From assembly GCA_001972305.1 (NCBI GenBank), contig BDDD01000086.1, positions 236,663 to 300,662 of the forward strand: 64,000 nucleotides of DNA, written 5' to 3'. A program made the position numbers and the translations under genes. The notes under the pieces are model-generated. The model saw only the letters and a list, made by a program, of their open reading frames with translations. It had not been told where the DNA came from and searched no databases. This document shows positions 9,331 to 62,699 of this stretch, one piece after another. Every line of letters starts with the position of its first letter. Position 1 is the stretch's first letter. The DNA is from Cephalotus follicularis. Taxonomy: Eukaryota; Streptophyta; Magnoliopsida; Oxalidales; Cephalotaceae.

Positions 9331-9712
9331 CTATGTATGGTACCAAAAGATAAAAATTTAAAAATAAGGTAAAAAATCCCGGTATATATAACACACCTGA
9401 AATTCAAAGAATCTTCTAAGCTTGGGGCAACAAGGGATCGCGGCGGTGTGACGGTTTTGCTCTCAATCGTCCGCTATCGACTATTGAGTCGAGAGTGAGA
9501 GAGATAGGAGATGAGCCGTTGAGGGTGAGAGGAGAGGAGAAGGAGAGGTCGTTGCCGACTTGCCGTTGGTGTTGAGAGCGAGAGAGACAGAAATTGGAGA
9601 CGTAGATATGTAAGAAAGTGAGAGAGACAGAGATTGGAGAAGGAGAGAGAGACAGATTGTGAAATAGTAACTGAGATTGTAAGTTCGATCTAATAAATTG
9701 CACATTTGAAAC
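9331..9712. other. Intron remnant of the GWD fragment and purine-rich stretch
   Basis: 9331-9415 looks like intron sequence. 9480-9670 is strongly purine-rich (GAGAGTGAGAGAGA, GAGAGACAGAGATTGG repeated), resembling the 5' UTR-like GA tracts in solo LTRs S1 and S2. No gene is recognised. Confidence 0.55.
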
Positions 9713-9888
9713 GGTTGAGAATCACCGTTTCAAAAGGTGCACCTTTTGAAACGGTAGACACCCACTATTTCAAAAAGGTGCGCCTTTTGAAATGGAACAC
9801 GCGGCCGTTTCAAAAGGCTACCCTTTTGAAACGGCCACGTGTTCCGTTTCAAAAGGCTGCGTTTCAAAAAACACTTTTTCTTGTAGTG
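9713..9888 (-). mobile_element. Terminus of a second CACTA-type DNA transposon
   Basis: From 9888 the minus strand begins CACTACAAGAAAAAGTG, a textbook plant CACTA terminal inverted repeat. At least seven subterminal copies of CGTTTCAAAAGG, in both orientations, fill 9713-9870. The subterminal repeat differs from that of the terminus at 8061, so these are two different elements. Both termini face the same way. The partner end was not found, so whether the GWD fragment lies inside this element is open. Confidence 0.75.
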
Positions 9889-9892
9889 ACCA

Positions 9893-10165
9893 CCGTCGAA
9901 CAATCACAAGAAAACGCATAAGCATCGACGCTTTTGAGAAAAGCATCGACGCTTATGCGCTAAAACGTTGTCGCTTTTAAGAAAAGCATCGACGCTCTGA
10001 CACTTTTGAGAAAAGCGTCGACGCTTTTGAGAAAAGCGTCAAGCACCAACGCTTTTGAGAAAAGCGTCGACGCTTACGTAGTTAAGCGCGGATAAACTGC
10101 GCTAAGCGTCAACGCTTAACGCATGAACGTCGACGCTTTGTCTTAAAGCGTCGACGGTTTGGCGT
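9893..10165. repeat. Array of CpG-rich palindromes, consensus AAAGCGTCGACGCTTT
   Basis: About ten copies of the near-perfect palindrome AAAGCGTCGACGCTTTTGAG, some with ATC for GTC, lie in tandem or with short spacers. Similar arrays with the same layout occur inside both solo LTRs (18790-18965 and 54905-55250). Here no LTR boundary is visible, so the array may be a remnant of such an LTR or a transposon subterminal repeat. Confidence 0.85.
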
Positions 10166-10807
10166 CAAAGTACGGAAAAAGAGTTTTTCTAAATAACCCA
10201 ATTAATTGTCTGTGTTTATAGAAGCATATTTATCAAGATTATTAGTTAATTTAATGAGATTGAATATGCATGACGGTATGGCTATGGACTTGACTTAGTT
10301 TTGTCTTATTTTATTCAAGTGTTGAATGCATGTTTTTATTTTTCATAATTTTTGGATTGTAATAATTTTTTGAGACTTGCATGTCTCTCTTCACTCTCTT
10401 AATTTGTATCTACAATTCTTCTTCACCTCCTTGTAACCCCCCTTGATTCATTTTAAGGTTTCTGTAGTTTATAGTTGATATATGTAATTGAAGAGCGAGA
10501 GTCGCAGCGAAAGCAAGTTAGAGAAGAAAGAAGATATTACAAGACCCATGCAAGTAGGGGAGCGAATGTATGATTGTAATGACATACCTAGGAATGAGAC
10601 CAGCAGCTTGTTTGAGAGTCAAACAAGTTGTAGTAGAAAAGTCCATAACCCGTCATTAGTTTATAATATGTATGTGATGCATGTCTAAATTATGCTCTAG
10701 AGGTTCTAACGGCCTCTCCATAATATGCCATCTACCTGTAATTTGATTAATAACGGAACGACTAATAATAATAATAAAAGTTATATTATTATTCCTCAAT
10801 TATACCA
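10166..10807. other. Region upstream of the Cp1 leader; possible diverged 5' LTR
   Basis: AT-rich sequence with no convincing gene. A copia 5' LTR is expected here, but I could not align it to the Cp1 3' LTR (15417-17184) beyond short words such as AGGTTCTAAC near 10700. Either the LTR was lost or replaced, or it has diverged beyond recognition by eye. Confidence 0.5.
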
Positions 10808-10819
10808 TGATATCAAGTT
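10807..10819 (+). promoter_or_regulatory. Possible Cp1 primer-binding site
   Basis: CCATGATATCAAG resembles the initiator tRNA-Met site TGGTATCAGAGC with several mismatches, and lies where the leader would begin. Weak evidence. Confidence 0.35.
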
Positions 10820-10827
10820 GAAGTGAA

Positions 10828-10947
10828 ATGGCACAAGAAAGTGTTCAGTCATTGCCTTTTGCCATTGCAACTGATATAGATGCTCTTGGAAATTGTGAGT
10901 GTTTTGGCCCCCGTCAAGACTTACCTTTTCTAGGAACATCTATATAA
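10828..10947 (+). CDS. Small upstream ORF in the Cp1 leader (39 codons)
   Basis: An ATG (AAATGG context) opens a 39-codon frame that starts MAQESVQSLPF and ends SI before TAA. It is the first ATG after the presumed primer-binding site and runs straight through stem-loop 1, so ribosomes translating it would have to open that hairpin. No family is recognised. It could equally be chance; the downstream leader holds other ATGs before the gag start at 11430. Confidence 0.35.
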   Translation: MAQESVQSLPFAIATDIDALGNCECFGPRQDLPFLGTSI

Positions 10948-11208
10948 GTTGAACATGAGATGTACATGTATATGAATTGTGAAGGTGAATATTTTGGCCC
11001 CCGTCAAGATTCACACTAATTCATCGTGTGTTTAATGGTAGGTTAAACTTGACTAGAATACATATGGCGTTTTGGCCCCCGTCAATGTCATGTGTAGACT
11101 AGAGGCAAAAGCGATGATCGGGAATCATGCTATTATATGGTTGGCAAAAGTTTGCCTAACTGCCAGATTTAGTATAGCGTTTTGGCCCCCGTCAATGTTA
11201 TACTAAAT
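10884..11208 (+). promoter_or_regulatory. Four stem-loops with identical 16-nt apical sequence in the Cp1 leader
   Basis: The sequence TTTTGGCCCCCGTCAA occurs exactly four times (10902-10917, 10992-11007, 11070-11085, 11180-11195). Each copy is flanked by sequences that differ between copies but pair within each copy. SL4: 11167-11179 with 11196-11208, 13 pairs. SL3: 11059-11069 with 11086-11096, 11 pairs, then a further 4. SL1: 10895-10900 with 10919-10924, continuing to 10884/10935. SL2: 10985-10990 with 11009-11014, plus 10974-10978 with 11018-11022. The conserved segment can itself fold as UUGGC/GUCAA closing a CCCC tetraloop above a UU bulge. Fixed apical sequence with varying paired flanks indicates a selected RNA structure. 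Its position before gag suggests packaging, dimerisation or translational control. Confidence 0.8.
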
Positions 11209-11429
11209 ATGTTGTAGGACACCGATCCCCACTCGGAAATAAGATCCATGAGACTTGGATTGTTATCTCTCGTCTTCCACAATATTGGAGGGATATGGGA
11301 TTCGCGAAAAACAGTGGGAGCCTGAGAGGAAAAACACCTAAAAGATTAAAGACCAAATCTTTATGGTTATAAACATTAAAATTGAATTTATTTGATTATT
11401 GTCGTTATTTTATATCAACAGACATCGCA
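11209..11429 (+). other. Rest of the Cp1 leader
   Basis: Noncoding sequence before the gag ATG. It contains GTGGGAGCCTGAG (about 11312) and a pyrimidine/T-rich tract ending TATATCAACAG at about 11411-11421, just before gag, which looks like a splice acceptor. A leader intron is possible but not demonstrable. Confidence 0.5.
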
Positions 11430-12270
11430 ATGACAAACCTCATCGATGTAATTCTTGAGAAGAATCAGCTGACATGTCCAAATTATGTGGACTGGCTACG
11501 GAATGTCAAAATAGTTTTGAATTTCTAGGATATAGATTATGTCCTAGAGGCCCCTATGCCAACACTGCCTGCTGAAGATGCTTCAACCGAAGATCATGCC
11601 ATTTATAGGAAATGGGTGGCTGATGAAAAGAAAGTCGGAAGCTACCTAATGACATCGATGAGCAATGCCCTACAAGTCCAGCATGAATCGATGCGAGACT
11701 CTAGGGAAGTCCTGCTACATCTTCGCGAGTTATACGGAGAAAATAGTAGGAACGCTCAGTTTCAGCTCACTGTTGAGCTGCATGGCACTAAAATGACTGA
11801 AAGATCTTTTGTTAATGATCATGTGCTTAAGATGATCAATGCGATTGAACGTCTTGCTGCTCTTGGCATCGTTCAGGATGCTGAATTAAGCACAGATCTG
11901 ATCCTTCATTCGCTTCCACCTTCCTTCTCTGGTTTCATCACCAATTTTAACATGAATAGGATATAGCTCCTCTGCCTAACCTTCTAAACATGCCGAGGGA
12001 AGCCAAAGTGAACATGAATAAGGGCAAGGCGCCAGTCATGATGGTAGGGCAGTCCCGTAGGCCTAAGAGGAAGGGCAAGTCCAAACTTGAGAAGGGGAAG
12101 ACTAAAAATGGGATGATAGCACGACGATCGGCATCTTTCAAACCAGGGAAAGCCAGACCACCTAATCAGACAAACCAGTAAGCTGTTGCTGTGCCGGATA
12201 CTATCGCAAGAGTTTCACCTTCCACTATGGAAAACCAAGACATTGGAAAAAGAATTGTGTGACGTTCCTT
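11430..12270 (+). pseudogene. Cp1 gag (Ty1/copia, UBN2-type) with broken zinc knuckle
   Basis: The frame starts at ATG 11430, stops at 11527-11529 (TAG) and continues open to 11966 as a typical copia gag (YVDWLRNVK, REVLLHLRELYG, VNDHVLKMINAIE, LPPSFSGF). After a frame change it resumes as a Lys-rich linker (GKAPVMMVGQSRRPKRKGKS) to a stop at 12181. The CCHC nucleocapsid motif (FHYGKPRHWKKNC, about 12218-12261) has lost its first Cys residues. Gag would form the particle and bind element RNA, presumably including the upstream stem-loops. Confidence 0.88.
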
Positions 12271-13458
12271 AGATCAATTGGCAAATGTATGCCCTATTTG
12301 TCTTATATAGAGGCGAATATGAATATTTCTGATTCATCTACTTGGATTTTAGACAGCGGATGTGGTACTCACATATGTTCTAATTTACAGGCCCTCACGG
12401 ACAGAAGAAACCTTGAGAAGGGTGAGGGAGATCTACGACTTGTGGGTGGTTCCGTTATTGAAGCTATAGCTATAGGATCAATTTATATTTTGTTGCATTC
12501 GAGCCAGAGTTTAGAACTCAAACATTGTGTTTATTCGCCTCGCATTTTGTGTAATATTATTTCTATTCCAGCATTAGATGCTGAAGGTTTTCATATTATT
12601 TTTAAAGACAAGTGTTGTTCTATTTTATTTAATAATATGATTTATGCAAAATGTTTCCTTCATGATGGATTATATATATTAAGTAAACATAAGATTGTTT
12701 TCAATATGCAAAAAGATAATAAAAGAAAGAGAGATCAAGTTAATCAATCCTACCTATGGCACTGCAGACTTGGTCATATAAGTGAGAAAAGAGTCCGCAG
12801 GTTGTTCTTGGATGGATACTTTGATTTTTCAACGTATCAACCACTTCCAACTTGTGAACCCTGTCCTAAAGGTAAAATGACCAAATCTCCCTTCACAGGG
12901 AAAGGTAAAAGGACCCTAGAACTGCTAGGTCTAGTACATACTGATGTATGTGGACCGATGACAGTTGATGCCAGAGGTGGATATGCCTACTTCATAACCT
13001 TTACAGATGATCATTCTCATTTCTGTTATTTGTACCTTATGCGGCATAAATCTGAAGCCTTTGAAAAGTTTAAAGAATTCAGACAAGAAGTAGAGAAACA
13101 GACTGGTAAAATTCTAAAGACTCTTCGATCAGATCGAGGTGGTGAGTAACTCTCCACCGAGTTTTTAACTTATCTTAGGGATAATGGGATTATCTCTCAG
13201 TGGACCCCTCCGAGAACACCACAGCATAATGGTGTGTTTGAAAGGAGAAATCGTACCTTGCTTGACATGGTGCGTATTATGATGAGTGATGCTGGATTTG
13301 CACTGTCTTTCAGGAGTTATGCTTTGGAGACTGCTATTCTCTTATTAAAAAGGACTCCAACGAAATCTGTTCTCAAAACCCCATATGAGATATGGAACGG
13401 GAAGAAACTCAATATTAGTTATCCAAGGATATGTGGCTGTCCTGCATATGTTAAGTAG
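12259..13458 (+). pseudogene. Cp1 pol: protease and integrase
   Basis: In copia order, protease comes first (STWILDSGCGTHIC, catalytic DSG intact), then the pre-integrase zinc region (LWHCRLGH ... CEPCPKGK) and the integrase core (HTDVCGPM, LRSDRGGE, TPQHNGVFERRN) with D, D and E all present. A single TAA at 13147-13149 replaces the codon after GGE, and another stop (13456-13458) falls after CPAYVK. Apart from these stops the reading is clean, so Cp1 is only moderately old. Confidence 0.92.
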
Positions 13459-13473
13459 ACAACAACAGATAAA

Positions 13474-14619
13474 TTGGAATCTAGGTCCATTAAATGTAAA
13501 CTTATGGGATATCCTAAAGAAACAAGAGGATATTACTTCTATTACCCACCTGACAACAAAGTGTTTGTAGTCAGGTATGCTACTTTTCTTGAGAAGGACT
13601 TCCTGTTGGAAGACAGTAGTGAGAGCGTGATAGAGCTAGATGAACGATCTACAAAATCACAAGTTGAGGTCCTGTTCAATCCTGTTCAAATTGATGTTCC
13701 TGAAATGTCAACTACCACATATACACAACCTCTACGTAGAACTATCCGAATACCCAGGGAACCTGAGAGATACTATGATAATTTTCTCATTGAAGGTACC
13801 CAAGAGGTAAATTTCATGAATGATGATCCGGTAAGCTATAAAGAAGCCATATGCAATATGGACTCGGAGAAATTGCTCAAAGCCATGAATTTTGAAATAG
13901 AATCCATGTACTCCAATAAAGTTTGGGATCTAGTGGATGCACCCGAAGGGATTAAACCCTTAGGTTGCAAATGGATTTTCAACAGGAAACTTGGGGATGA
14001 TGGAAAGGTGAAGACCTTCAAAGCTAGGCTCGTAGCCAAAGGTTACAATCAACGGGAAGGGATTGATTATGAGGAAACTTTCTCTCCCATAGCCATGCTT
14101 AAATCCATTAGGATTTTACTTGCTATAGTTGCACATTTTGACTATGAGATATGGAAAATGGATGTGAAGACTGCTTTTCTCAATGGAAACATTGATGATG
14201 ACATATATATGACTAAACCTGAGGGATTCATATCCATTGGTGAGGACCAGAAAATGTGTATGCTTCAGAAGTCCATTTATGGACTAAAGCAAGCTTCGAG
14301 AAGTTGGAACATCCGATTCGATAAGACAATCAAAGAGTTTGATTTCATTAAGAATCGAGATGAACCATGTGTGTATAAAAAGGTCAGTGGGAGCTCAATG
14401 ACTTTTCTAGTCTTGTATGTTGACGACATACTCCTTATAGAAAATGATGTGATCATGTTATCGAATGTAAAGGCTTGGTTATCCATAATTTTTTCCATGA
14501 AAGACTTGGGAGAAGCTTCCTATATCTTGGGAATAAAGGTCTATAGAGATAGATCAAAAAGGATGATGGGGTTATCCAGTCTTTGTACAATGACAGAGTG
14601 CTTAAGCGGTTTAGAATGA
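13474..14619 (+). pseudogene. Cp1 pol: integrase tail and reverse transcriptase
   Basis: Open for 381 codons: integrase C-terminal part (KLMGYPKETRGYYFY), then RT with VWDLVDAPEGIKPLGCKWI, KARLVAKGY, DVKTAFLNG, SIYGLKQASRSWN and the polymerase box YVDD intact (LVLYVDDILL). The frame is lost at about 14600, where the IQKSLY-like segment shifts frame. RT copies the element RNA into cDNA. Confidence 0.93.
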
Positions 14620-15401
14620 AAAATTCCAAGAGAGGTTACCTGCCTCTATGTCATGGGATTTCACTTTCTAAGCAGATGTCTCCCAAGACAACTGAAGAAA
14701 GATAGAGGATGATGTGCATTCCATATGCTTTGGCAATTGGAAGCGTCATGTATGCTATGCTTTGCACTAGACCAGATATCGCATATGCTGTAAGTGTTAC
14801 AAGCAGTTATCAGTCAGATCCTGGTAAGCAACATTGGAAGGCTGTCAAAGATATCCTCAAGTACCTTAACATGACTAAGGATTTATTCTTAATGTATGGA
14901 GGAAAGGGTTTGAAAATTGAGGGTTTTACTTACTCTAATTGTCAGACAGATGTAGATGATTCAAAATCAATATCGGGGTTTGTGTTCACCTTGAATGGTG
15001 GAGAAGTGAGCTGGAAGAGTTCTAAGCAACTTACCACTGCGGATTCAGTGACAGAAGCTGAATACATTACGGCATCGGAAGCTGCCAAGGAAGGTGTATG
15101 GATGAAGAAGTTCATCGAAGATTTGCTTGTAGTTCCTGACATTGATGATCCGGTATCTTTATACTATGATAATAATGGAGCGATAGCACAGTCCAAGGAG
15201 CCTAGATCTCACTCAAAGTCTAAACACATTCTTAGGTATTTTCATCATATATGTGAGATCATTGATCGTGGAGATATAAAAGTGGAAAGAGTTCCAAGTG
15301 AAGACAACATTGCAGACTCGCTTACTAAGGCACTATCAAAGACAGTCTTTGACAGACACCTTGATGCTATGGGTGTGAGACACTATGGCAACTGGCTTTA
15401 G
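14620..15401 (+). pseudogene. Cp1 pol: C-terminal RT and RNase H
   Basis: From 14709 an open frame of 230 codons gives the copia RNase H region: MYAMLCTRPDIAYAVS, a degenerate YSDxD box (YSNCQTDVDD, first Asp now Asn), SGFVFTLNGGEVSWKSSKQ, SVTEAEYITASEAAKE, YYDNNGAIA, HILRYFHHI and LTKALSK, then a stop just before the polypurine tract. The change in the first acidic position would weaken RNase H. Confidence 0.9.
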
Positions 15402-15416
15402 CACTTAGTGGGAGAT
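15402..15416 (+). promoter_or_regulatory. Cp1 polypurine tract
   Basis: The purine-rich AGTGGGAGAT immediately precedes the TGTT that opens the 3' LTR, the standard position for plus-strand priming. Confidence 0.75.
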
Positions 15417-17184
15417 TGTTAGAGATAAAGTGTTGCAAGCTAGTACAGAGCTTGTATTTACTATATCTTGTATAAACGATTTATAAATTCAATAGAGATG
15501 TTTATGTTTTATTAATGGCTATGAGTTCGTTTCATTAATACATGCTTAATTAATTGTAAATGAATGTCCTGGAATAAAGTTAGAGAACCAAGTTCATGAT
15601 GAGATCATGATGTGAAAGTTGAAATCTTGGTATACTTTATTTCGAATCTTCCTGGTCATAGGATTGACACTCAGGGCATGATCAATCCGGATAGACCAGC
15701 ACGTACTATCAGATCGGTAAGCAGTGGGTGACTGATCTCACATTCACTCGCATGGGCGATGCTATGACAACTACGTGGGTGCTTATTTGATGAGTTCACT
15801 GAAGGTGACTATTGATAGAATATCTGTATGGAGTTTTACTTACATGTCAGACAGAATTCTAATTTTACAGCAGTGCATGTGGTCCTTGCACATGAGCCGT
15901 CACTGGATGTTTTATGCATAAGGTGCTGTGTTTTGATGATGCTTAAATACATATTCTATGATGTATAAACAAGCATTAGTTGGACATGGTACGCTTATGT
16001 ATGGAGGCATGTGAACTGGAAAAAATGAATCCAGTGCTTCTAGTAAAAGAAGATTATGCTTAAGAGGATTTTTCGTTAGCGATTAAGCACTTGGTCAGGC
16101 TAATCAAGAGTGTGATATCATTAGTTTAATATTAGAGGGGCACCTCTAATATTATTTAGGCTAATGAAAGATAGTCACGAGGCTGAAGATTAAATTATTG
16201 AGGTCTGACATAATCCGTATCCAAGATTTAATCAGAGCATTGTTAATGGAGGGACTATACGTGCATGTACCTGTAAATAGTGTTCACAAATTATTCATAT
16301 TACCTGGGGGTCGTTATGCATTGCTAGATGTCGATGTCGACCAGTGGGATGCCCGAGATTAAATTGATAAATTAATCTTGGAAGAAAAGAATTAAAATTG
16401 TTTTAATTCGATATGTCCAAGAGAATATTTTTTATATGATAATAAATATTTAATTGGATAATTGTGAATGTCATGATTTAATCCTACGGCTAGCGTAATA
16501 GTGAACCCATAGGTTCACACACAATACGGGCTGCTATTTCCAACAAGGTTATGAGAGAAAAATTAGGATAATAATTTTCTAATTATAATTAATGAGATTA
16601 ATTATCCTTAATGAGATTAAGGTAAATTAGAATTCTAGAAGAAAAAGAAGACTTCTCCTAGAAGGAATAGGAGACTTCTACTAGAAGGAATGTGAGACTT
16701 CTCCTAGAAACAAAATAGTTTGTGTTCTAATATGATTGTCTAGCAGCAACTATATATATAGAGCACCAGCCCTATAATGTACATGTTTTTGTGTTCTTTT
16801 GGAGTCTTCTCTCTTTTCTCTCTCAAGAACATAATCAAGAGTTGAAGGTTTGAGAAACCGGGTGTTGGAAATTGAAGCTTGGTGTGGATACCTTGGAGGC
16901 CTTCTACACTTTGAGGCTAGAACCGTTTCATAGAAACAAGGAATCTGCGCTTTTGGAAGCAAGAAAACTCAAAGGAAGAAGGAAGGAGATGCTCCATTAA
17001 TATGAGTAATTTCGCATGCTCCTCCTTATTATATATATATATATATAAAACTGTATATGTATGCTCAAAAGATCCTGCGTATGAATCATATGGCTAGATA
17101 TTCATGAGATGATAACATAATATATATATTAGGGTTTTATGCATCTAGATATTTTATTGTTTAAATCGTCATAAGGTTCCAACA
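15417..17184 (+). repeat. Cp1 3' LTR (about 1.77 kb)
   Basis: Starts TGTTAGAGAT right after the polypurine tract and ends TTCCAACA, where Gy2 pol sequence resumes. It contains AT-rich patches, an imperfect triplet near 16625-16710 (ACTTCTCCTAGAAGGAATAGG type, three copies) and TATATATA tracts at 16750 and 17030. No matching 5' LTR was recognised, so a target duplication cannot be tested. Confidence 0.75.
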
Positions 17185-20722: not shown

Positions 20723-22668
20723 TTAGGTAACTGGGAACCGGACACCAAATCTATGGCATAATGAATACCTCTCATTGGTGAGAGCTTACTAGGAAGCTCG
20801 TTGGGCATAACATCGAAGTAATCTCCCAACAGGCTAGCTATCTCAGGGGTAAGATCAGCAATGGGAGTGGAAATATCTGACGGACTATCTCGTGTCATAA
20901 GGGCAAACATGCATCGAGTCTCTTGGCTATTGTTTTCGAATGCCCTTTGATCCAAGATATGAAGGCTCTTTTTAATTGGCACTCATGTATTACCTTCGAT
21001 TGTGATCCATGGTCTTTTGGACAAGGCTTAGCTGGATTAAGAATGATATTCTTGTCCTTGTACCTAAAAGCAAAAGTATTTGCTCTACCATGGCTAATCA
21101 CTTCTAAATCTTAGAGCCAAGGAAGACCTAACAAAACATGAGTTACTTCCATAGGTAGTACATCACAATATACCCTGTCATCATAATCACCTCATCATAA
21201 TCACCCATTTTTATCGACACTAAGCATCTTTCTGAAACAGGGAAAGAAGTTTTGTTTACCCAGGAAACTCGGAATGGCTTTGGGAGTGGCTCTACTTTCA
21301 GGTTCAAGCGGCAATGGTGGTCTTAGACACAATATTCATGCAACTCCCATTGTTTATGACCAACTTGCATGATCGCTCCCCATATTGAATGAAGGTATGA
21401 AAAATGGTAGTCCGTTTTCACTCATTATCATCTCGGATTCTGGGAAAATTGCACCGGATTATGCCAAATTGCTCATTTTCCTCTTCGAATTCATCTTCCT
21501 CTCTAAAGTATTCAACCACATTCAAAACTTGATCCTCACTCTTTGGTGGGTCAACAGTCTTTACTGGATGGATAAAGCTATCTAAGGGAAACGTGCCACA
21601 ATGTGTCCTCTAGTATGACAGTTATGACATTGTATCGAGGGACTACCTAAAAAGGTAATGCTAGAAAAACCATTAGGGCTAGTAACAAATTAGGATACCA
21701 CAATTTTGGAGGTATTGGTGGTACCTTCTTTGGGAGCAGTTTGAGGGGTGGTTTGAGACAAAGGAAAAGGTCTAGACAAAGAGAAAGACCTAGATTGACG
21801 TGACTTATTCATCACATACTGATGCGGGGTCTTAATGAAATAACACTACGTAGCAAGAGCTTTTTGGCAGGTTGTCGTAAAAGATTCGAGAGCATACATC
21901 TTTACCTCTTTCTGAATGTCCTATTTAAGGCCATTAACAAATCTTGAGACACTCTGACAAGTCTCATCAGATAGGTTGCACTTATTCTCTAACTCCTCAA
22001 AATTCTATATGTAGTCATTGACTGTAGAGGACTGTCTAAGATTGATGAGTTAGAGATATAAGTCATTCCTATAGGTCGCAGGCAAGTACAACTCCTTGAG
22101 CTTCTGTATCATAATGGTCCATAGAGTAATGGGTGGTTCACCTATACGCTCTTGATGCATCTGTACATTGTACCAATACTTCTTAATAGACCTTATCAAT
22201 ATCATCTTAGCAAACAAAACTCGCTCAGGGTCTCAAACATGGTACTATTGGAAGTAATCTTCCATCTCGTCTAGCGAATCTAGGAAAGTGGTAGGATCTA
22301 AGATGCCATCATAAGAATGTACATCTACCTTAACTCTATTGGCCATTTCAAAGTAGGCATCTTGCGCATACCTAGGTGGTGCAGGAGAATGTCTATCCTA
22401 CTGCTAAGGATGATGCTGAAAATTATCAAACCTACATGGAGGCAGAGACTGTCTAGGTGGTGCTGGAGAAAGTCTATCCTGATGCCTAAGATGACGTTGG
22501 AATTCCTCAAACCTATCCTCAAGATTTTCTTGCGATTCCGTAAACTAAAGGGTTATATGCAAATTCCTATGGGGTGGATTTGATTGTGGTACGCTAGGAG
22601 TTCGTGAGATTCCCTGAATTGACCCAGATGAGTAGGGTGAGGCATTTTGGGGTCTAACCGGCTCTTCT
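20723..22668 (-). pseudogene. Gy2 gag-protease-RT start, heavily decayed
   Basis: Minus-strand pieces are recognisable despite many stops: gag (DVHSYDGILDPTTFLDSLDE, ITLWTIMIQKLKELYLP, NFEELENKCNLSDE), a zinc knuckle CHNCHTRGHIVARF with the last Cys now Phe (about 21600-21640), a protease-like segment VINNGSCMNIV (Asp changed to Asn, about 21330), and the pre-RT segment DYFDVMPNELPSKLSPMRG and GIHYAIDLVSGSQLPN up to S1. It is the oldest element of the nest. Its gag is cut at 22668 by Gy3 and resumes at 32947. Confidence 0.85.
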
Positions 22669-23229
22669 TGTCACGTCTCGAACCGTGGGATGGGCCCCAA
22701 GACTCGACACGTGACAATCCGTACAATCATTATCATTATTACTCATAAAATTTAAAACTTAATTAAATCATAAACATAATCCTTAAATTAACGTGTGGAT
22801 ATACAGACCCAGTTCATTACATAAAGAAATACATTACTACAAACCAGCAGTTAAAAAAATACATATTTATTTCCTGCAATTTCGTCCATAAAAGTGTACT
22901 GTCGAGAAGGAAGAACTTACTGTACTCTTTATCCTTGTCGCTGCTGCGATGTGCCTCCACTACCTGTTCCTGTACCTGGCCCATTCAAAGGAATGGGTCA
23001 GCAACCCTGAGGGTTGTGTAGGTTACCACATACACGGGCACATACCAGGGGAACAACAATACAAGCAGAGGAGAAAATCATAACAAATATGCATGCCTAT
23101 AAGAATACAGATCACAATCCATATCATAAACTTTATCATCCTTTTGTCATTGGACTGCTCTACTCAAACCATACATATTACATACAGAGGAGTCTAGTCC
23201 GGTCATCCTATGGTCTGGTCAACATATAA

Positions 23230-23470
23230 GGTTCACCTCTAGGCTCACCAGCCCGCGGAATTCTCCTCCAGGTTCACCTGCTGAGCGGAATTCACCATTT
23301 GCTCACCTGCTCTGCGGTTCACCCTTTGGATCACCAGCTTTGGCGGAATTCACCTTTAGGTTCACCATTAGCGGATTCGCCCGAGGATCACCTGCCTCTC
23401 AGAGTTCACCCCTTGGGTTCATCTGCTAGGCAGAATTCTTCCCAGTTGGCTCACCTGCCTGGGACCATCT
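23230..23470. repeat. Degenerate GGTTCACCTGCT/GCGGAATTC repeats in the Gy3 3' LTR
   Basis: Eight or more units mixing GGTTCACC, GCTCACCTGC and GCGGAATTC with 20-30 bp spacing. The same block occurs at 30826-31060 in the other LTR. Confidence 0.8.
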
Positions 23471-24097
23471 ATCTAAGTCTTTTCCCTTTACATTCCATTT
23501 CCTAATTCCATTTCCTTCCCTGGATAATTTCCCTTTTCATTCCTTTAGCATTCATAATTTACTTCTTAAGCCAGACCAGGATTCACCATTGTGCATGGCA
23601 CTTCCCATGCACGAGGTAAACCTCAAGGAGTGCATGGCGCATGCAGGCCATTATTCACTATATGGATGCATGCCAGGGACTCCCTCATGCAAATTTTCCT
23701 TTTTCTTCCCTTGTGTGTACATGCAGGGGTCATGATCCATTACTTAAGTGCATGCCAGGGAACATTGGTAGCTTCTTTGGAATGATTCCCATGCAGAGGA
23801 CGTGGGTAGGCGCCCACTCAATGTCCATCTCTTCACAGCACGTACAAGGAGCGCCAGGCCGGGAACAAAGTGCATGCATGGGGAAGGAGAGCCAAGGACG
23901 GCTCTTTGGGTGCTTGGTAGAGAACCATAACGCATGCATGGCGAAAGAGAGCCAGCAATGGCTCCTCTGGCAATGGCGCAAAGCCCCGCTGGGTTCCTCT
24001 GGCCCTATGATAGCTCGGCATGGGAGCTCGGCAAGCATTGGAGGGAAACTTGTGCCTTGCATGGAGCTCGCGTTGAGCTTAGGCATGGTTGGAGCTC

Positions 24098-24335
24098 GGC
24101 GTTGGCCTCGGCAGCTCGGACATGCACCTCGACAGCTCGGGCATGGACCTTGGCAGCTAGGGCATGGAGCTCGGGCGTTGGCCTCGGCAGCTCGGGCATG
24201 CACCTCGGCAGCTCGGTTATGCACCTTGGCAGCTCGGGCATGGACCTTGGCAGCTCAGGCATGCACCTCGGCAGCTCAGGCATGGACCTTGGCAGCTCGG
24301 GCATGCAGCTCGGCAGCTCGGGCATGGACATCTCC
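24098..24335. repeat. 21-bp tandem repeat in the Gy3 3' LTR
   Basis: Ten to eleven units of GGCAGCTCGGGCATGGACCT type. Because 21 is a multiple of three, the array makes spurious long frames on both strands. The order of unit variants differs from that in the 5' LTR (31685-31915). Confidence 0.92.
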
Positions 24336-25349
24336 TCGGGCACTTCACCTCCTCGACATCCCTAGCATCATGGCAACTTGGGACCCGACCTTCTTGGGGA
24401 TGGATGCTTGTGCTCTGTATATGACTACTTGGTGAGAAGCCGCGCTCGGACGCACCAGCAGGGGAGCTCGGGTGCTCCTCGTGGCGTCTCTGCAACTCTC
24501 CCAACGTGCTAGGCGCACAGTCAGGTACAGGGACGAAATGCCAGGGATGCAACACAGTATTACTTAACTTCACTTACATAAAACGCACCATTGCGCCCTT
24601 GTCCCCCAATGTCCAAGAAATACTCACGTACTCTAGTTTTACTTCTCTAAGGTAATACATATAAATTCAATAACACCCAGACAAGCAATAAAAGAAATAA
24701 CACATAATCACACAGACAAAAGAACAATCACACACACACATACGCTGGTAGGCGCTCGGACATGAAGCAACCTACCTGGGGTAAGGTTGAAAACGAAGAT
24801 CTTCTTCCTCCTCCTTAATCTGGACTTCCTTCCAATAGGGGTCTGCTACACACCTTTCGCCTTGCTAATTTCTCCTTCCTTGCACAATTTCCTTCACTTC
24901 CAGGAAATGGTATATATATAGATATATATACCTTATTCCAGTGTATGGCCCCATCTCCCATCATTCTTGCCTTTCTCTCGATTTTTCTGGAGCAAAACGT
25001 GAAAAGAAAGGCTAAAAGTGTAGCTCCTAGATCCATTTCTCCTTTTATAATCATAATGGAAGTATCCAGAATTATGTAGTCAATTCTTACGGGTGCAGGC
25101 CAACTATATGTCTTGTGCCATCCTCTCACTTGGGCCTTTCTTTCATTCCTTTCCCTTTTAAAGCCCAATTGCTATACATATTAAATTTGGTCCAAAGAGA
25201 ATAAAACAATTTCTTAAGCCCAAGGTCATAAATTATATTCCATTAAGCCCAAATAAATACATCATAATTATCGGGCCCAACCCAAAAAGGAAGGAAAATA
25301 ATTACAAAGCCCAATAATAAAATTTAATAATATTTAGGGCTCTTACATC

Positions 25350-30255: not shown

Positions 30256-30260
30256 AAACT

Positions 30261-32946
30261 TGTCACGCCCCGAACCGTGGGATGGGCCTCATGACTCGAC
30301 ATGTGGCAATCTGCACAATCATTATCATTATTACTCATAAAATTTAAAACTTAATTAAATCATAAACATAATCCTTAAATTAATGTGTGGATATACAGAC
30401 CCAGTTCACTACATAAAGAAATACACTGCTACAAACCAGTAGTTAAAAATAAATAAATACATATTTATTTCCTGCAATTTCATCCATAAAAGCGTACTGT
30501 CGATGAGGAAGAACTTACTGTACTCTTTATCCTTGTCGCTGCTGCGATGTGCCTCTACTACCTATTCCAGTACCTGGCCCATTCAAAGGAATGGGTCAGC
30601 AACCCTGAGGGTTGTGTAGGTTGCCACATACACGGGCACATACCAGGGGAACAACAATATAAGCAGAGGAGAAAATCATAATAAATATGCATGCCTACAA
30701 GAATACAGATCACAATCCATATCATAAAATTTATCATCCTTTGTCCTCGGACTGCTCTACTCAAACCATACATATTACATACAGAGGAGTCTAGTCCGGT
30801 CATCCTGTGGTTTAGTCAACATATAAGGTTCACCTCTAGGCTCACCAGCCTGCAGAATTCTCCTCCAGGTTCACCTGCTGAGCGGAATTCGCCCTTTGCT
30901 CACCTGCTCTACGGTTCACCCTTTGGATCACCAGCTTTGGCGGAATTCACCTTTAGGTTCACCATTAGAGGATTCGCCCGAGGATCACCTGCCTCGCGGA
31001 GTTCACCCCTTGGGTTCACCTGCTAGGCGGAATTCTCACCAGTTTGCTCACCTGCCTGGGACCATCTATCTAAGTCTTTTCCCTTTACATTCCATTTCCT
31101 AATTCCATTTCCTTCCCTGGATAATTTCCCTTTTCATTCCTTTAGCATTCTTAATTTACTTCTTAAGCCAGACCAGGGCTCACCATTGTGCATGGCACTT
31201 CCTATGCACAAGGTACACCTCAAGGCGTGCATGGCGCATGCAGGCCATTATTCACTATATGGATGCATGCCAGCGACTCCCTCATGCAAATTTTCCTTTT
31301 TCTTCCCTTGTGTGTGCATGCAGGGGTCATGATCCATTACTTAAGTGCATGCCAGGGAACATTGGTAGCTTCATTGGAATGATTCCCATGCAGAGGACGT
31401 GGGTAGGCTCCCACTTAGTGGCCATCTCTTCACAGCACGTACCAGGAGCGCCAGGCCGGGAACAAAGCGCATGCATGGGGAAGGAGAGCCAAGGACGGCT
31501 CTTTGGGTGCTTGGCAGAGAACCATAATGCATGCATGGCAGGAGAGAGCCCGCAATGGCTCCTCTGGAGATGGCGCAAAGCCTCACTGGGTTCCTCTGGC
31601 CCTATGACAGCTCGGCAAGCATTGGAGGGAAGCTTGTGCCTTACATGGAGCTCGCGTTGAGCTCAGGCATCTTAGGAGCTCGGCTTTGGCCTCGGCAGCT
31701 CGGACATGGACCTCGGCAGGTCGGGCATGCACCTCGGCAGCTTGGGCATGGACCTTGGCAGCTCAGGCATGGAGCTCGGGCGTTGGCCTCGGTAGCTCGG
31801 GCGTTGGCCTCGGCAGCTCGGGCATGGACCTCTGCAGCTCGGGCATGGACCTTGGCAGCTAGGGCATGCACCTTGGCAGCTCGGGTATGCACCTCGGCAG
31901 CTCGGGCATGGACATCTCCTCGGGCACTTCACCTCCTCGACATCCCTGGCATCCTGGAAACTTGGCACCCGACCTTCTCGGGGATGGATGCTTGTGCTCT
32001 GTATATGACTACTTGGTGAGAAGCCGCGCTCGGACGCACTAGCAGGGGAGCTCGGGTGCTCCTCGTGGCATCTCTGCAACTCTCCCAACGTGCTAGGCGC
32101 ACAGTCAGGTACATGGACGAAATGCCAGGGATGCAACACAGTATTACTTAACTTCACTTACATAAAAGGCACCGTTGCGCCCTTGTCCCCCAATGTCAAA
32201 GAAACACTCACGTACTCTAGTTTTACTTCTCTAAGGTAATACATATAAATTAAATAACTCCTATATAAGCAATAAAAGAAATAACACATAATCACACAGA
32301 CAAAAGAACAATCACACACACACATACGTTGGTAGGCGCTCGGACATGAAGCAACCTACCTGGGGTAAGGTTGAAAACAGAGATCTTCTTCCTCCTCCTT
32401 AATCTGGACTTCCTTCCAACAGGGGTCTGCTACACACCTTTCACCTTGCTAATTTCTCCTTCCTTGCACAATTTCCTTCACTTCCAGGAAATGGTGTATA
32501 TATGTATATGTGTGTGGGCAGGGACTCTTCCGAGGAAGGCCCCTGCTTGTCTTCTTCTTCCTTATTCCAGCGTCTAGCCCCATCTCCTATCATTCTTGCC
32601 TTTCTGTCAATTTTTTTGGAGCAAAACGTGAAAAGAATGGCTAAAAGTGTAGCTCCCAGATCCCTTTCTCCTTTTATAGTCATAATGGAAGTATCCAGAA
32701 TTATGTAGTCAATTCTTACGGGTGCAGGCCAACTCTATCCCTTGGGCCATCCTCTCACTTGGGCCTTTCTCTCATTCCTTTCCCTTTTAAAGCCAAATTG
32801 CTATACATATTAAATTTGGTCCAAAGAGAATAAAACAATTTCTCAAGCCCAAGGTCATAAATTATATTCCATTACCCAACCCAAAAAGGAAGGAAAATGA
32901 TTACAAAGCCCAATAATAAAATTTAATAATATTTAGGGCTCTTACA
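30261..32946 (-). repeat. Gy3 5' LTR (2.69 kb)
   Basis: Starts TGTCACGCCCCGAACC and ends GGGCTCTTACA on the plus strand. It contains the same internal repeats as the 3' LTR: GGTTCACC/GCGGAATTC block (30826-31060), CATGCA-rich segment (31185-31560) and 21-bp array (31685-31915). Confidence 0.95.
31685..31915. repeat. 21-bp tandem repeat in the Gy3 5' LTR
   Basis: About ten units of the GGCAGCTCGGGCATGGACCT type, with two adjacent GGGCGTTGGCCTCGG variants where the other LTR has one. Confidence 0.92.
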
Positions 32947-48394: not shown

Positions 48395-49574
48395 TTATAT
48401 GCATAGCTGACTGATATCACAATGGAGGACACATGACCCTTTCATGGGCAGTCCAATCTCAGTCAAAAACATTTGTATCCACTGTAATTCTCCTGTTACA
48501 TTTACCATGGACCTATATTCAGCCTCAACACTTGAACGAGAGACTATAGACTGTTTCTTGCTCTTCCACGATACAAGATTTCCTAGTAGAAAAACACAAT
48601 AACCTGAAGTAGAATGACGATCAATAGGACACCTTACCCAATTAGCATTCGAGTAACCTACAACCTCCAAAGAATCTAGATCAGAATATCAAGATATGAT
48701 AAGATGCCCTCAATCTCGAAATACTAGGCCTTGGTCAGGAGCTCTTTTCAAATATCTTATAATATAAAGAACTGTCTGCCAATGAGGAGTACGAGGAGCA
48801 CACATGCACCGACTCACCACACTAACAACAAAAGAAATTTCTGGACGAGTAATAATAAGATAATTCAATTTACCAACTAATCGCCGATATTTCTCAGGAT
48901 CATGTAGGAGATCACCTTGCTCATTATCAAGTTTCACAAGAGGGTCCATAGGAGTGTCACTAGGCTTACAATCACGAAGCCCTACATCCCCTAAAATGTC
49001 AGGAGCATACTTTCTTTGAGAAAGAGCAATACCAACACTAGAATATGCAACCTCATTGCCCAGAAAATAGCATAACTGACCTAGATCTTTAGTACTAAAC
49101 TCACGTTGTAAAAATTGTTTGAGTCTATGTATACCTCCAACATCACTTCCAGTAACGATAATATCATCTACATAGACCAGTAGAAGAACACACCTAGTAG
49201 AGGATGACATACTAAATACTAAGTGATCCACACTACATCGACTCATACCAAAGTTAACCACAACATCACTAAATCTCCCAAACCAAGCACGGGGAGATTG
49301 TTTCAAGCCATATAAAGCCTTCCGCAATTTGCAAACCAGCTCCCCCCTGAGCAACAAATCTGGGTGGTTGCTTCATATAAACTTCCTCATGAAGATCACC
49401 ATGTAAGAAGGCATTTTTCACATCCAACTGGTGTAACGGCCAATGAAATCGAGCCGCAAATGATATAAGAATACGAACAGAGGGAATTTTAGCCATTGGA
49501 GAGGTCTCGTCGTAATAAACCCCATATGTTTGAGTGTATCCTTTAGCAACAAGATGAGCCTTTAATCGTTCCAC
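48395..49574 (-). pseudogene. Cp3 pol: reverse transcriptase and RNase H
   Basis: RT segments: [52 protein letters not shown] and YVDDIIVTGSD (polymerase box intact). The RNase H follows (NANWVRCPIDRHSTSGYCVF, NLVSWKSKKQ, SVEAEYRSM), where the first acidic motif YSDAD has become YSNAN. Breaks: frame change at about 49270-49350, stops at about 48707 and 48395. Confidence 0.9.
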
Positions 49575-51060
49575 TGTTCAATCAGGATGATGCATGACCA
49601 CAAAAACCTAACGACACCCAACTAACTGCTTGCCAGATGGTAAATGGACAAGATCCCAAGTTTTATTTGTTTGTAATGTGACCATTTCATCTTCCATAGC
49701 ACGGCTCCATCCAGGATGAGCTAAAGCTTCTTGCACACTATTAGGCATAGACATAGAGGAAATGGACGACACAAAGGCTGACATATCGGGAGACAGATTA
49801 TTATAATAAACAAAGTGCGAAAGAGGATATCGGGTACTTGTATGTGAGCAATAGGTGACTCGGGAGCAGGTGGATTGGAGACGATAGCCAATGGTGGTGG
49901 GTCGTACTGCTGCGGAGGATCAGTTGACTCTGGAACTGACTAGAGTCTACAAGAGTACACTTTCAGAGGCATGGGTTATGGCTGAGAAACAGCGTGAAGA
50001 AGAAAAAGATCCACCGTTGAAGGTTCTGGCTGAGACTCTGCATTGTAATAGGTTGTCTTAAAAAAATGTCACATTAGCAGACGCAGACAGCTGACGTCGA
50101 CTTGAACTGTAACAGATATATCCTTTTTGAACAAATACACATTTTTCTGCACGAGGGGATAACTTATCATCACCAGGGCCCAAGGAATGAACAAAGCAAA
50201 CACACCCAAATACTCGGGGACGAACTGACTAGAGAGGCAGACCTGGATGAAGAAGAGTATAAGGAACAACTCCCTTCAATATAAAGGATAGAAGACGGTT
50301 TATGAGATGACAGGAAGTAAGAAGAGCATATCCCCAGAAAGATTTAGGCATATTTGTGTGAAGAAACAAACACCTGGCAACATCAAGTAAATGTCTATTC
50401 TTGCGCTTAGCTACCCCATTTTATTGTGGGGTGTGAACACATGAACTTTGGTGAAGAATTCCACATGATTCAAGAAAAGGTGTAAACTGAGAAGCAGAGA
50501 AATATTCACGTGCATTGTCAGTGCATAGACATTTAACAGATACACCATACTGATTAAGAATATAATAGAAAGTACAAAAAGACTTGAAAACTTCAATACA
50601 ATCTTTTATTAAATATAACTAAGTTGTACGACTATAATCGTCAATAAATGTAACAAAATACTTAACTCCAAATGAAGACTCATGAGTAGGACTCCAAACA
50701 TCTGAGTGAACTAACTCAAATGGTTGAGACACACGCCTCACATCTCGAGGAGGGAAAGACACACGATGATGTTTACCTAACTGGCACGTTTCACAATTAA
50801 ATTGAAGACTCGACACTGGTAAAGGAGTAAGTACATTTGTTGATGGGTGACCAAGACGATAATGAAGTTTGTAGGCATCATCTGTCTGTTGAACAGAAAC
50901 AACAGTAGTTATAATATCTTGATCCAACAGATAAAGACCACTGGACTCACGCCCACCACCGATCCGACATCCAGTTTTCCGATCCTAAAAAATACAAGAG
51001 GTAGCAGAAAACAAAACAGTACAATTGATCACGGGTAAGACTGCTAATAGACAACAACCT
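49575..51060 (-). pseudogene. Cp3 pol: integrase
   Basis: The best part (50619-50927) shows the pre-integrase region YKLHYRLGHPS ... CETCQLGKHHRV and the core start LVHSDVWSP, YFVTFIDDYS. The rest to 49575 contains the later core and the C-terminal linker in several frames with stops. Confidence 0.8.
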
Positions 51061-61224: not shown

Positions 61225-61654
61225 CCCCCTTGAATTGCTATTCCATATCACTATGACTGCCTCGTTAAAACCTTGCTAAGAAAAACCCATTGGGATAAAA
61301 ACCTTTGCGAAGGAAAAAGAGCACAGTCTCCCCCTGAAACAAAACTTCACAATTTCTTGAACTGTATTAATGAAGATCTTTAATCTGACGCATCCCAATA
61401 TCATGTATGAGCTTCTTGAATGTAGTACCCGGTAATGCCTTCGTAAATAAATCCGCTAAATTATCACTTGATCGGATTTGTTGTACATCAATATCACCAT
61501 TTTTCTGAAGCTCATGGGTGTAGTAGAATTTTGGTGAAATATGTTTCGTTCGATCACCCTTGATATATCCTCCTCTGAGTTGTGTGATGAAAGCAGCATT
61601 ATCTTCATATATTACAGTGGGATTATTTCTGATCGAGGATAGTCCACATGATTC

Positions 61655-62671
61655 TTATATATGTTGAATCATTGATCTCAACCATATACATTCTCGACTT
61701 GCTTCATGAATTGCAAGGATCTCTGAATGATTCGAGGAAGTTGCTGTCATTGTCTGTTTTGTTGATCGCCATGATATAGCAGTGTCACAAAATGTAAAGA
61801 GATAACCGGTTTGTGATCTTGCTTTATGTGGATCAGACAAGTATCCAGCATCAGCATATCCAATCAATGTTGATTTTGTGCCCCTTGGATAAAATAGACC
61901 CATATCAGTTCTTCCACGCAGATAGCGCATTATATGCTTAATTCCATTCCAGTGCATTCTCGTTGGTGTAGAGCTATATCTTGCTAGTAAATTGACAGAG
62001 AATGCAATATCAGGTCTTGTGCAATTTGCAAGATACAATAGTGCTCCAATTGCGCTAAGATAAGGAACTTCAGGTCCAAGGATTTATTCCCCTTCTTCTT
62101 GAGGACGAAATGGATCCTTATTGACATCAAGAGATCGGACTACCATTGGAGTGCTTAGAGGATATGCTTTGTCCATGTTGAATCGACTAAGAACCTTTTC
62201 AGTGTATGTGGATTGATGGATGAAGATCCCAGATGATATGTGCTCCACCTGTATACCAAGACAAAACTTTGTTTTTCCAAGATCTTTCATTTCAAACTCG
62301 CCTTTTAAATAGGTTGCTGTCTTTGTAAGTTCTTCAGAAGTACCTACAAGATTTAAATCATCCACATATACTGCAATAATAGCAAATCCATCGTTAGATT
62401 TTTTGATAAAAATACATGGACATATTTGATCATTTGAATACCTTTCTTTGATCAAGTATTCACTTAGTCGATTGTACCACATTCGACCAGATTGTTTCAA
62501 TCCATACAACGAACGTTGTAGTTTAATTGAATACATGTGGCGAGATTTGTTCGATTCAGGAATTTTAAATCCATCAGGAATTCTCATATATATGTCACTA
62601 TCAAGTGATCCATATAGGTATGCTGTTACTACGTCCATAAGACGAGTTTCAAGTCCGTTCGAAGCAGCCAT
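61655..62671 (-). pseudogene. Cp4 internal region: partial RT and RNase H
   Basis: From the ATG at 62669-62671 the frame runs LMDVVTAYLYGSLDSDIYM, SLYGLKQSGRMWYNRL, VYVDDLNLVGTS (polymerase box intact) and ends at a stop (62084). It resumes as RNase H (YLANCTRPDIAFSVNLLARY, GYADAGYLSDPHKARSQTGY, SWRSTKQTMTATSSNHSEI) to 61655. The N-terminal half of RT and all upstream domains are missing; the deletion joins the leader to RT. It cannot be self-sufficient. Confidence 0.9.
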
Positions 62672-62679
62672 AGTTGGGT

Positions 62680-62699
62680 AGAGTCTCGTGCTGATAACG
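62680..62699 (-). promoter_or_regulatory. Cp4 primer-binding candidate
   Basis: Directly after the 5' LTR end (..TATAACA) the minus strand reads CGTTATCAGCACGAGACTC. The TTATCAGCACGA phrase is commonly seen in this position in plant copia elements; the tRNA was not determined. Confidence 0.65.

What the first reader, a model, noticed from the sequence alone, without database searches (positions are those of the whole stretch)
10884..11208. Four stem-loops with an invariant UUGGC-CCCC-GUCAA cap and unrelated, self-complementary lower stems
The 16-nt sequence TTTTGGCCCCCGTCAA is repeated exactly four times, at starts 10902, 10992, 11070 and 11180. Flanking sequences differ but pair within each copy: 13 pairs in SL4, 11 in SL3, 6 plus 9 in SL1, 6 plus 5 in SL2, including G-U pairs. 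The constant part can itself form five pairs closed by CCCC, above a UU bulge. Keeping the cap while changing both stem arms together is what selection on RNA structure looks like. It lies in the copia leader just before gag, as retroviral packaging and dimerisation signals do. Its palindromic GGCC could also mediate loop-loop contacts. I know of no described element with this cap.
Basis: partly seen in the sequence, partly recalled or inferred. Interest (0 to 1): 0.88.

Follow-up and report, generated by a model that had tools for sequence, protein, structure and literature searches.

The report
Four matching hairpins before retrotransposon gag
A common plant jumping gene carries, just before its first protein gene, four RNA hairpins with the same tip on four unrelated stems, which looks like a repeated docking site on its RNA, perhaps the tag by which the element packs its own genome.

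Summary
The 16-mer occurs exactly four times, each copy at the tip of a self-complementary stem. The element is a decayed, 5'-truncated Ty1/copia retrotransposon, probably from the pitcher plant Cephalotus follicularis, whose genome could be searched. The extended 18-mer GTTTTGGCCCCCGTCAAG occurs 2,582 times there against 2 for the reversed pattern; the 20 places that I read all lie in this leader. In relatives the hairpins lie about 1 kb after the primer-binding site and 0.2-0.56 kb before gag. One geometry fits all four: 2-nt GU bulge, helix UUUGGC/GUCAAG, CCCC loop, on stems of unrelated sequence. Stem variants shared by many copies keep pairing (11 of 12, 6.4 expected; in 17 more divergent copies 13 of 14, 8.4 expected), whereas variants in 1-3 copies keep it at the neutral rate (25 of 121, 26.4 expected). 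A/T sites of the cap vary about five times less than elsewhere. So the hairpins were selected as RNA while copies were active. Function is inferred: I favour a multi-site Gag-recognition (packaging) signal, formally like the gammaretroviral GACG hairpin pair. GGCC kissing is not supported. Twenty other copia leaders sampled here lack the motif.

The parts
9889..17184 (+). 5'-truncated, decayed Ty1/copia element that holds the leader; homology to family copies starts at 9889, so the 5' LTR and primer-binding site are missing here
   Evidence: blastn of 30 family loci; Pfam matches
10868..10951 (+). SL1: long hairpin, apical cap at 10902-10917
   Evidence: fold, z -7.9; inverted repeat I5
10973..11023 (+). 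SL2: hairpin, cap at 10992-11007; 3' arm damaged by a 4-nt deletion in this copy; extent taken from relatives
   Evidence: deletion absent from the 29 other copies of A2
11054..11101 (+). SL3: hairpin, cap at 11070-11085
   Evidence: fold, z -5.0; 0 of 1000 flank shuffles
11167..11208 (+). SL4: hairpin, cap at 11180-11195; holds the one pair with a frequent change on both sides, 11172/11203
   Evidence: fold, z -5.1; pair types GC 30, AT 24, GT 7 of 68 copies
10902..10917 (+). cap, copy 1 (18-mer in relatives, 10901-10918)
10992..11007 (+). cap, copy 2
11070..11085 (+). cap, copy 3
11180..11195 (+). cap, copy 4
11430..11966 (+). gag: ATG at 11430, in-frame stop at 11526-11528, then open from 11529 to 11966 (Retrotran_gag_2); broken here
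12166..14619 (+). zinc-knuckle-like stretch (by eye), protease-region barrel, integrase and RT in three open pieces (12166-13149, 13150-13458, 13459-14619); broken
14706..15401 (+). open piece at the place of RNase H
   Evidence: assigned by position only, no Pfam match
15417..17184 (+). 3' LTR (TGTTAG ... TCCAACA)
   Evidence: relatives carry a 5' LTR that ends at the equivalent of 17184 and is followed by a primer-binding site

Best explanation
The four hairpins are one repeated cis-acting RNA module in the genomic RNA of a high-copy copia family. The recognised part is the cap: a 2-nt GU bulge, the helix UUUGGC/GUCAAG and a CCCC loop. The stems only have to pair, to hold the cap out, so their sequences drift. 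Four equal caps in about 300 nt give several docking sites (avidity) for one ligand. I think the ligand is most likely the element's own Gag (nucleocapsid part), so that the cluster marks the full-length RNA for packaging, in the place where retroviral packaging signals lie. Shown: repetition, common geometry, place in the leader, low variation of A/T sites in the cap, pairing kept in shared variants. Inferred: that the ligand is Gag and that the step is packaging.
For: Four exact caps. Outside the cap, 30-nt flanks are unrelated between hairpins: in 36 comparisons from 3 copies, only the left arms of SL1 and SL2 fall under 0.05 (0.042 and 0.038, in 2 of 3 copies) and the next lowest are 0.054 and 0.062. 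One 16-pair structure fits 92.9% of cells of 31 hairpins, covariation score 0.569 against 0.221 shuffled and at most 0.202 slid (the rows are 4 paralogues in 8 copies, so not 31 independent cases). Four model hits in each of 40 copies and in each of 30 further loci, two of which repeat earlier copies. Lower-stem variants carried by at least 8 of 68 copies keep pairing in 11 of 12 cases (6.4 expected, P 0.0005); in 17 more divergent copies, variants with at least 4 carriers in 13 of 14 (8.4 expected, P 0.0005); variants with 1-3 carriers are at the null in both sets, 25 of 121 (26.4) and 24 of 80 (25.4). Over all stem pairs, cap helix included: carriers >=12 keep 11 of 13, carriers 4-9 keep 12 of 25, carriers 1-3 keep 40 of 160 (high against rare P 3e-5; transitions only 11 of 12 against 40 of 67, P 0.047). 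A/T-majority cap sites: 6 changes against 29.4 expected, reached in 3e-5 of permutations. Relatives have an LTR end and primer-binding site upstream and gag downstream. The leader from 9889 to gag holds 41 ATGs, so ordinary scanning through it to gag is unlikely, which fits a genomic-RNA signal (inference).
Against: I found no binding or packaging data for this family. Retroviral nucleocapsids usually prefer exposed G (recalled); here the exposed loop is CCCC. Over 30 copies covariation is at chance (2 pairs changed on both sides, 2.3 shuffled), and all distinct stem variants together keep pairing only at the null rate (45 of 150, 42.3 expected). Only one pair has a frequent double change, and both changes could be deaminations. 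Two of 13 high-frequency variants break pairs, one of them in the cap helix. The lack of high-frequency variants in the caps is not significant by itself (1 of 72 against 23 of 403 sites, P 0.15), and the G/C sites of the caps vary almost as elsewhere (5.9% against 8.9%). The frequency cut-offs were chosen by me after seeing the counts; with at least 3, 4 or 6 carriers in the 68 copies P is 0.049, 0.026 and 0.026. Twenty sampled leaders of other copia gags lack the module, so it is not a general copia signal.
Confidence: 0.45

Rival explanations
1. Host-factor or translation signal: the C-rich loops bind a host KH-domain, PCBP-like protein, or the cluster controls translation or splicing of a 1.6-kb leader full of upstream ATGs.
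For: A loop with CCC forms at each cap in 25 to 28 of 30 individual folds, and is exactly CCCC in 16 to 21 of 30. 41 upstream ATGs; an acceptor-like site at 11421 (24 of 30 copies) and a donor-like site at 11038 (26 of 30) by a simple consensus score. BARE of barley makes separate RNA pools for translation and packaging, and a spliced one (PMC3735527, passages).
Against: No transcript data. The donor-like site lies between SL2 and SL3, so splicing from there would remove only two hairpins. A PCBP site needs no elaborate bulged cap helix (recalled).
Confidence: 0.22
2. Dimerisation signal: the caps, or loop-loop contacts between them and other loops, join two genomic RNAs.
For: Place in the leader; dimerisation and packaging are coupled in retroviruses and proposed so for Ty1 (PMC5874298 and PMC5454406, passages).
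Against: The loop CCCC is not self-complementary and GGC is in the stem. The CGGGA of the hairpin at about 11115-11129 varies among copies, and a GGG loop there appears in only 1 of 30 folds.
Confidence: 0.12
3. Dead relic: a short motif spread by duplication or gene conversion, and the stems are old inverted duplications without function.
For: Covariation at chance over 30 copies; all distinct stem variants together at the null rate. In the window copy SL3/SL4 match at 93% over 29 nt and SL1/SL2 at 87% over 30 nt, cap included.
Against: Shared variants preserve pairing. Cap A/T sites vary little. Flanks outside the cap are unrelated between hairpins, yet pair within each of SL1, SL3 and SL4 and within SL2 of relatives.
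Confidence: 0.13
4. Small-RNA source or decoy: the hairpins feed Dicer-like enzymes or trap small RNAs.
For: SL1 has 35 pairs.
Against: SL3 and SL4 are short; a fixed cap on changing stems is the opposite of what a miRNA precursor conserves (inference).
Confidence: 0.04

Closest known systems
GACG hairpin pair (SL-C/SL-D) in the leader of gammaretroviruses; Konings et al. 1992 is seen only as a citation in PMC5874298 (passages)
   Same: Leader hairpins with an identical apical loop, in the dimer-linkage and packaging region upstream of gag.
   Different: Two hairpins with a 4-nt GACG loop that contact each other; here four hairpins with an 18-nt bulged cap and a CCCC loop that cannot self-pair, in a plant copia element.
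Ty1 SL1a/SL3a kissing hairpins and PAL sequences (PMC5454406, passages)
   Same: Ty1/copia-type element; 5' RNA structure proposed for dimerisation and packaging.
   Different: Ty1 uses complementary loop motifs and palindromes at the 5' terminus; the passages show no repeated identical cap.
BARE1/BARE2 of barley (PMC3735527, passages)
   Same: Plant copia; the paper refers to conserved dimerisation and packaging signals.
   Different: The passages seen contain no hairpin ('stem-loop' occurs 0 times in the text). BARE1 splices within gag.
Motif TTTTGGCGCCGTTGCCGGGGA of plant Gypsy leaders (recalled; one printed instance seen in PMC5904367, passage)
   Same: Begins TTTTGGC; short conserved leader motif before gag (recalled).
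   Different: Single copy and another superfamily (recalled); the pattern is not in this window with up to 3 mismatches.

Membership tests
Ty1/copia LTR retrotransposon | copia-type domains with integrase before RT | tested here: met
   In order PF14223, PF22936, PF13976, PF00665 (below its cut-off), PF25597, PF07727
Ty1/copia LTR retrotransposon | LTR end followed by a tRNA-iMet-type primer-binding site (sequence recalled) | tested here: met
   In relatives only: GGTATCAGAG directly after the LTR end in 4 of 8 loci read, changed by one or two bases in the other 4; the 10-mer is found upstream in 10 of 30 loci. The window copy is truncated at 9889
GACG hairpin pair of gammaretroviruses | GACG apical tetraloops | tested here: not met
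   The loop is CCCC
GACG hairpin pair of gammaretroviruses | leader hairpins near each other with an identical apex | tested here: met
Ty1-type kissing hairpins | complementary or palindromic apical loops | tested here: not met
   CCCC loops; GGG loop near 11120 in 1 of 30 folds
Packaging signal | specific Gag binding and need for packaging | not testable with these tools
Any Rfam family | match at the gathering score | tested here: not met
   0 matches in the window

The most novel reading that the evidence does not exclude
A plant Ty1/copia family evolved a modular packaging code: one 18-nt bulged RNA cap, used four times on interchangeable stems, read by its own Gag. It would be a defined multi-site packaging signal of a plant LTR retrotransposon, of which I found none in print, and a convergent counterpart of the gammaretroviral GACG hairpin pair.
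Probability: 0.38. Interest if true: 0.78.

Novelty: new variant of a known kind. Interest (0 to 1): 0.62.

Why it matters
How plant LTR retrotransposons, the bulk of many plant genomes, choose their own RNA for packaging is poorly defined (recalled). Here is a compact, testable module: a fixed cap, free stems and four copies per element, in a family with 2,582 exact caps in one genome. It gives a direct binding assay, and the decayed caps (in the first 40 copies only 73 of 160 18-mers are intact) are a natural mutational series.

Tried and rejected
Rfam: no match in the window. Two caps 40-70 nt apart in IMG/VR: 0. 18-mer in the prokaryote genome collection: 3 hits; about 7 expected by chance on my own estimate from the collection size. 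Gag and RT in IMG/VR: none. Paper search with pieces of the cap: 50 papers, 20 listed, whose titles mostly point to bacterial isolates, microbiomes and 16S work; none was opened. Kissing with a GGG loop: not supported. Covariation over 30 copies: negative.

Samples and dropped rows. One search tested the window copy only. A1 holds 31 of 32 hairpins from 8 copies chosen by me; one with a deletion in the cap was left out. Both family searches scored only the 40 best of 2,431 and 2,451 candidates, so copies are biased towards similar ones. Searches used 68 of 70 loci (two duplicates dropped). One search added 20 loci chosen because they hold an exact cap (19 places with one exact cap, one with three; picked by eye from 100 listed places, not at random). 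Three of these (L222, L232, L234) match the leader only in part and put unrelated letters into that alignment; with them, variants with at least 4 carriers kept pairing in 16 of 22 (12.5 expected, P 0.024), without them 13 of 14 (8.4, P 0.0005). One search used 20 of the 150 gag places scored; by mutual similarity they form seven or eight groups, and 14 of the 20 fall in two of these. In the minimum-energy fold of SL2 of a relative the 2-nt bulge sits 2 nt earlier, so the common geometry is a structure that I imposed and counted.

Full report
What is there. The 16-mer is present four times, as stated, and nowhere else in the window with up to two mismatches. Each copy sits at the apex of a predicted hairpin. 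SL1, SL3 and SL4 beat flank shuffles (11, 0 and 1 of 1000); SL2 of this copy does not (390 of 1000), because it lacks 4 nt of its 3' arm that the 29 other copies of alignment A2 have.

Which element. Open pieces downstream match copia gag, the protease-region barrel, gag-pre-integrase, integrase (below its cut-off), SH3 and RT domains. The RT has relatives in many plants (38-64% identity among the 120 listed of 7,658). The window copy is broken: gag stops at 11526-11528, pol is in pieces, and homology to other copies begins at 9889. In other copies an LTR end equivalent to 17184 is followed by a tRNA-iMet-type primer-binding site (8 loci read; exact 10-mer in 10 of 30), then about 1 kb, the hairpins, and gag. 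So 'copia leader just before gag' is right, although the window itself shows no 5' LTR.

How common and how specific. The 18-mer GTTTTGGCCCCCGTCAAG occurs 1,285 + 1,297 times in the genome; the same letters read backwards occur 0 + 2 times. Of the 100 places listed I read 20, 19 of them with a single exact cap, looking for other contexts: all 20 caps lie in this same leader at 82-90% identity. A covariance model made from 31 hairpins gives 161 matches in 40 copies, four in each plus one weak match (E 0.29), and 120 in 30 further loci, four in each, with none at E 0.5 in the 20 kb beside the window. Upstream of 20 other copia gags from this genome there is none (best 11.5 bits, E 1.2); 14 of these 20 belong to two groups. 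Two other copia elements in the window also lack it. I did not reach families of intermediate distance.

The common architecture. In relatives the constant unit is 18 nt. With a GU bulge, helix UUUGGC/GUCAAG (one U-G pair) and CCCC loop imposed on 31 hairpins from 8 copies, 92.9% of cells pair. Individual folds give the same for SL1, SL3 and SL4 and a bulge 2 nt earlier for SL2. Lower stems: 6 pairs and three further helices in SL1, about 16 in SL2, 10 plus 4 in SL3, 12 in SL4. Outside the 18 nt, 30-nt flanks compared between hairpins are near the level of shuffled sequence (36 comparisons, two under 0.05, both SL1-SL2 left arms).

Is it selection? (a) Covariation across the four paralogues is high (0.569 against 0.221 shuffled; 106 cells changed on both sides against 45), but the rows are four lineages in eight copies, and the number of pairs changed on both sides, 9, is reached by 38 of 500 shuffles. 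(b) Across 30 copies covariation is not above shuffles. Most differences in the caps are C-to-T and G-to-A, as expected of methylated dead copies. (c) Separating shared from private variants resolves this. Against a null of the same base changes placed at random lower-stem sites, variants carried by at least 8 of 68 copies keep pairing in 11 of 12 (6.4 expected, P 0.0005) and those in 1-3 copies in 25 of 121 (26.4 expected). In 17 more divergent copies the figures are 13 of 14 (8.4, P 0.0005; at least 4 carriers) and 24 of 80 (25.4). Lower cut-offs in the 68 copies give P 0.049 (at least 3 carriers), 0.026 (4) and 0.026 (6); in all 85 copies, 0.077, 0.023 and 0.007; all variants together are at the null, 45 of 150 and 37 of 94. 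The contrast also holds with a different count that includes the cap helix (11 of 13 high, 12 of 25 middle, 40 of 160 rare; transitions only 11 of 12 against 40 of 67, P 0.047). One pair, SL4 11172/11203, exists as G-C (30), A-T (24) and G-T (7) in 68 copies; both changes could be deaminations. In the caps, A/T-majority sites show 6 changes in 28 sites over 40 copies, 0.5% against 2.6% elsewhere, but G/C sites 5.9% against 8.9%. Together this says that the active source copies were held to the structure and dead copies are not. Shared descent makes variants non-independent and I chose the cut-offs, so the P values are guides.

How it may work. The cap is the likely recognition surface; the stems are spacers. 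Four repeats suggest avidity for one ligand. Place (after the primer-binding site, before gag, in the genomic RNA) points to packaging by Gag. The C-rich loop is unusual for a nucleocapsid site (recalled) and leaves a host KH protein as the main rival. With 41 ATGs between 9889 and gag, this leader is unlikely to be scanned through, so Gag may come from another RNA form; a donor-like and an acceptor-like site exist, but nothing shows that they are used. Dimerisation through GGCC is not supported, since GGC is in the helix and no partner loop is kept.

Comparison. The nearest formal parallel is the GACG hairpin pair in gammaretroviral leaders (passages of PMC5874298; the original paper was not read). 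The present module fails membership on loop sequence and on loop-loop contact. Ty1 uses complementary loop motifs (PMC5454406, passages). For plant copia, BARE is said to have conserved dimerisation and packaging signals, without hairpins of this kind in the passages that I saw (PMC3735527). No paper in the held library contains the 16-mer, and searches on leader structures of plant copia elements listed nothing like it (listings only, apart from the passages named).

Noticed in passing
9909-10165: Array of AAGCGTCGACGCTTTTGAG-like palindromic units in the leader after the primer-binding site; exact GCGTCGACGC cores vary from 0 to 4 among 30 copies. L212, upstream of another copia gag, has a similar array, so it may be a dispersed repeat.
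   Followed up: partly
11408-11421 and 11038: Acceptor-like site ending 8 nt before the gag ATG (24 of 30 copies) and donor-like site between SL2 and SL3 (26 of 30 copies), by a simple consensus score.
   Followed up: partly
9705-9857: Several inverted and direct copies of CCGTTTCAAAAGG just upstream of the point where copia homology starts; possibly another insertion that marks the truncation.
   Followed up: no
48464-50939 and 61385-62692 (minus strand): Two other copia elements, RT 35-39% identical to this one, without cap hairpins.
   Followed up: partly
22667-25347 and 30259-32946: Pair of 2.7-kb direct repeats, 90.6% identical, perhaps the LTRs of a 10-kb element.
   Followed up: no
10981/11014 in SL2: A G-to-C change carried by 18 of 68 copies breaks this pair although it is frequent, against the general trend.
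   Followed up: no
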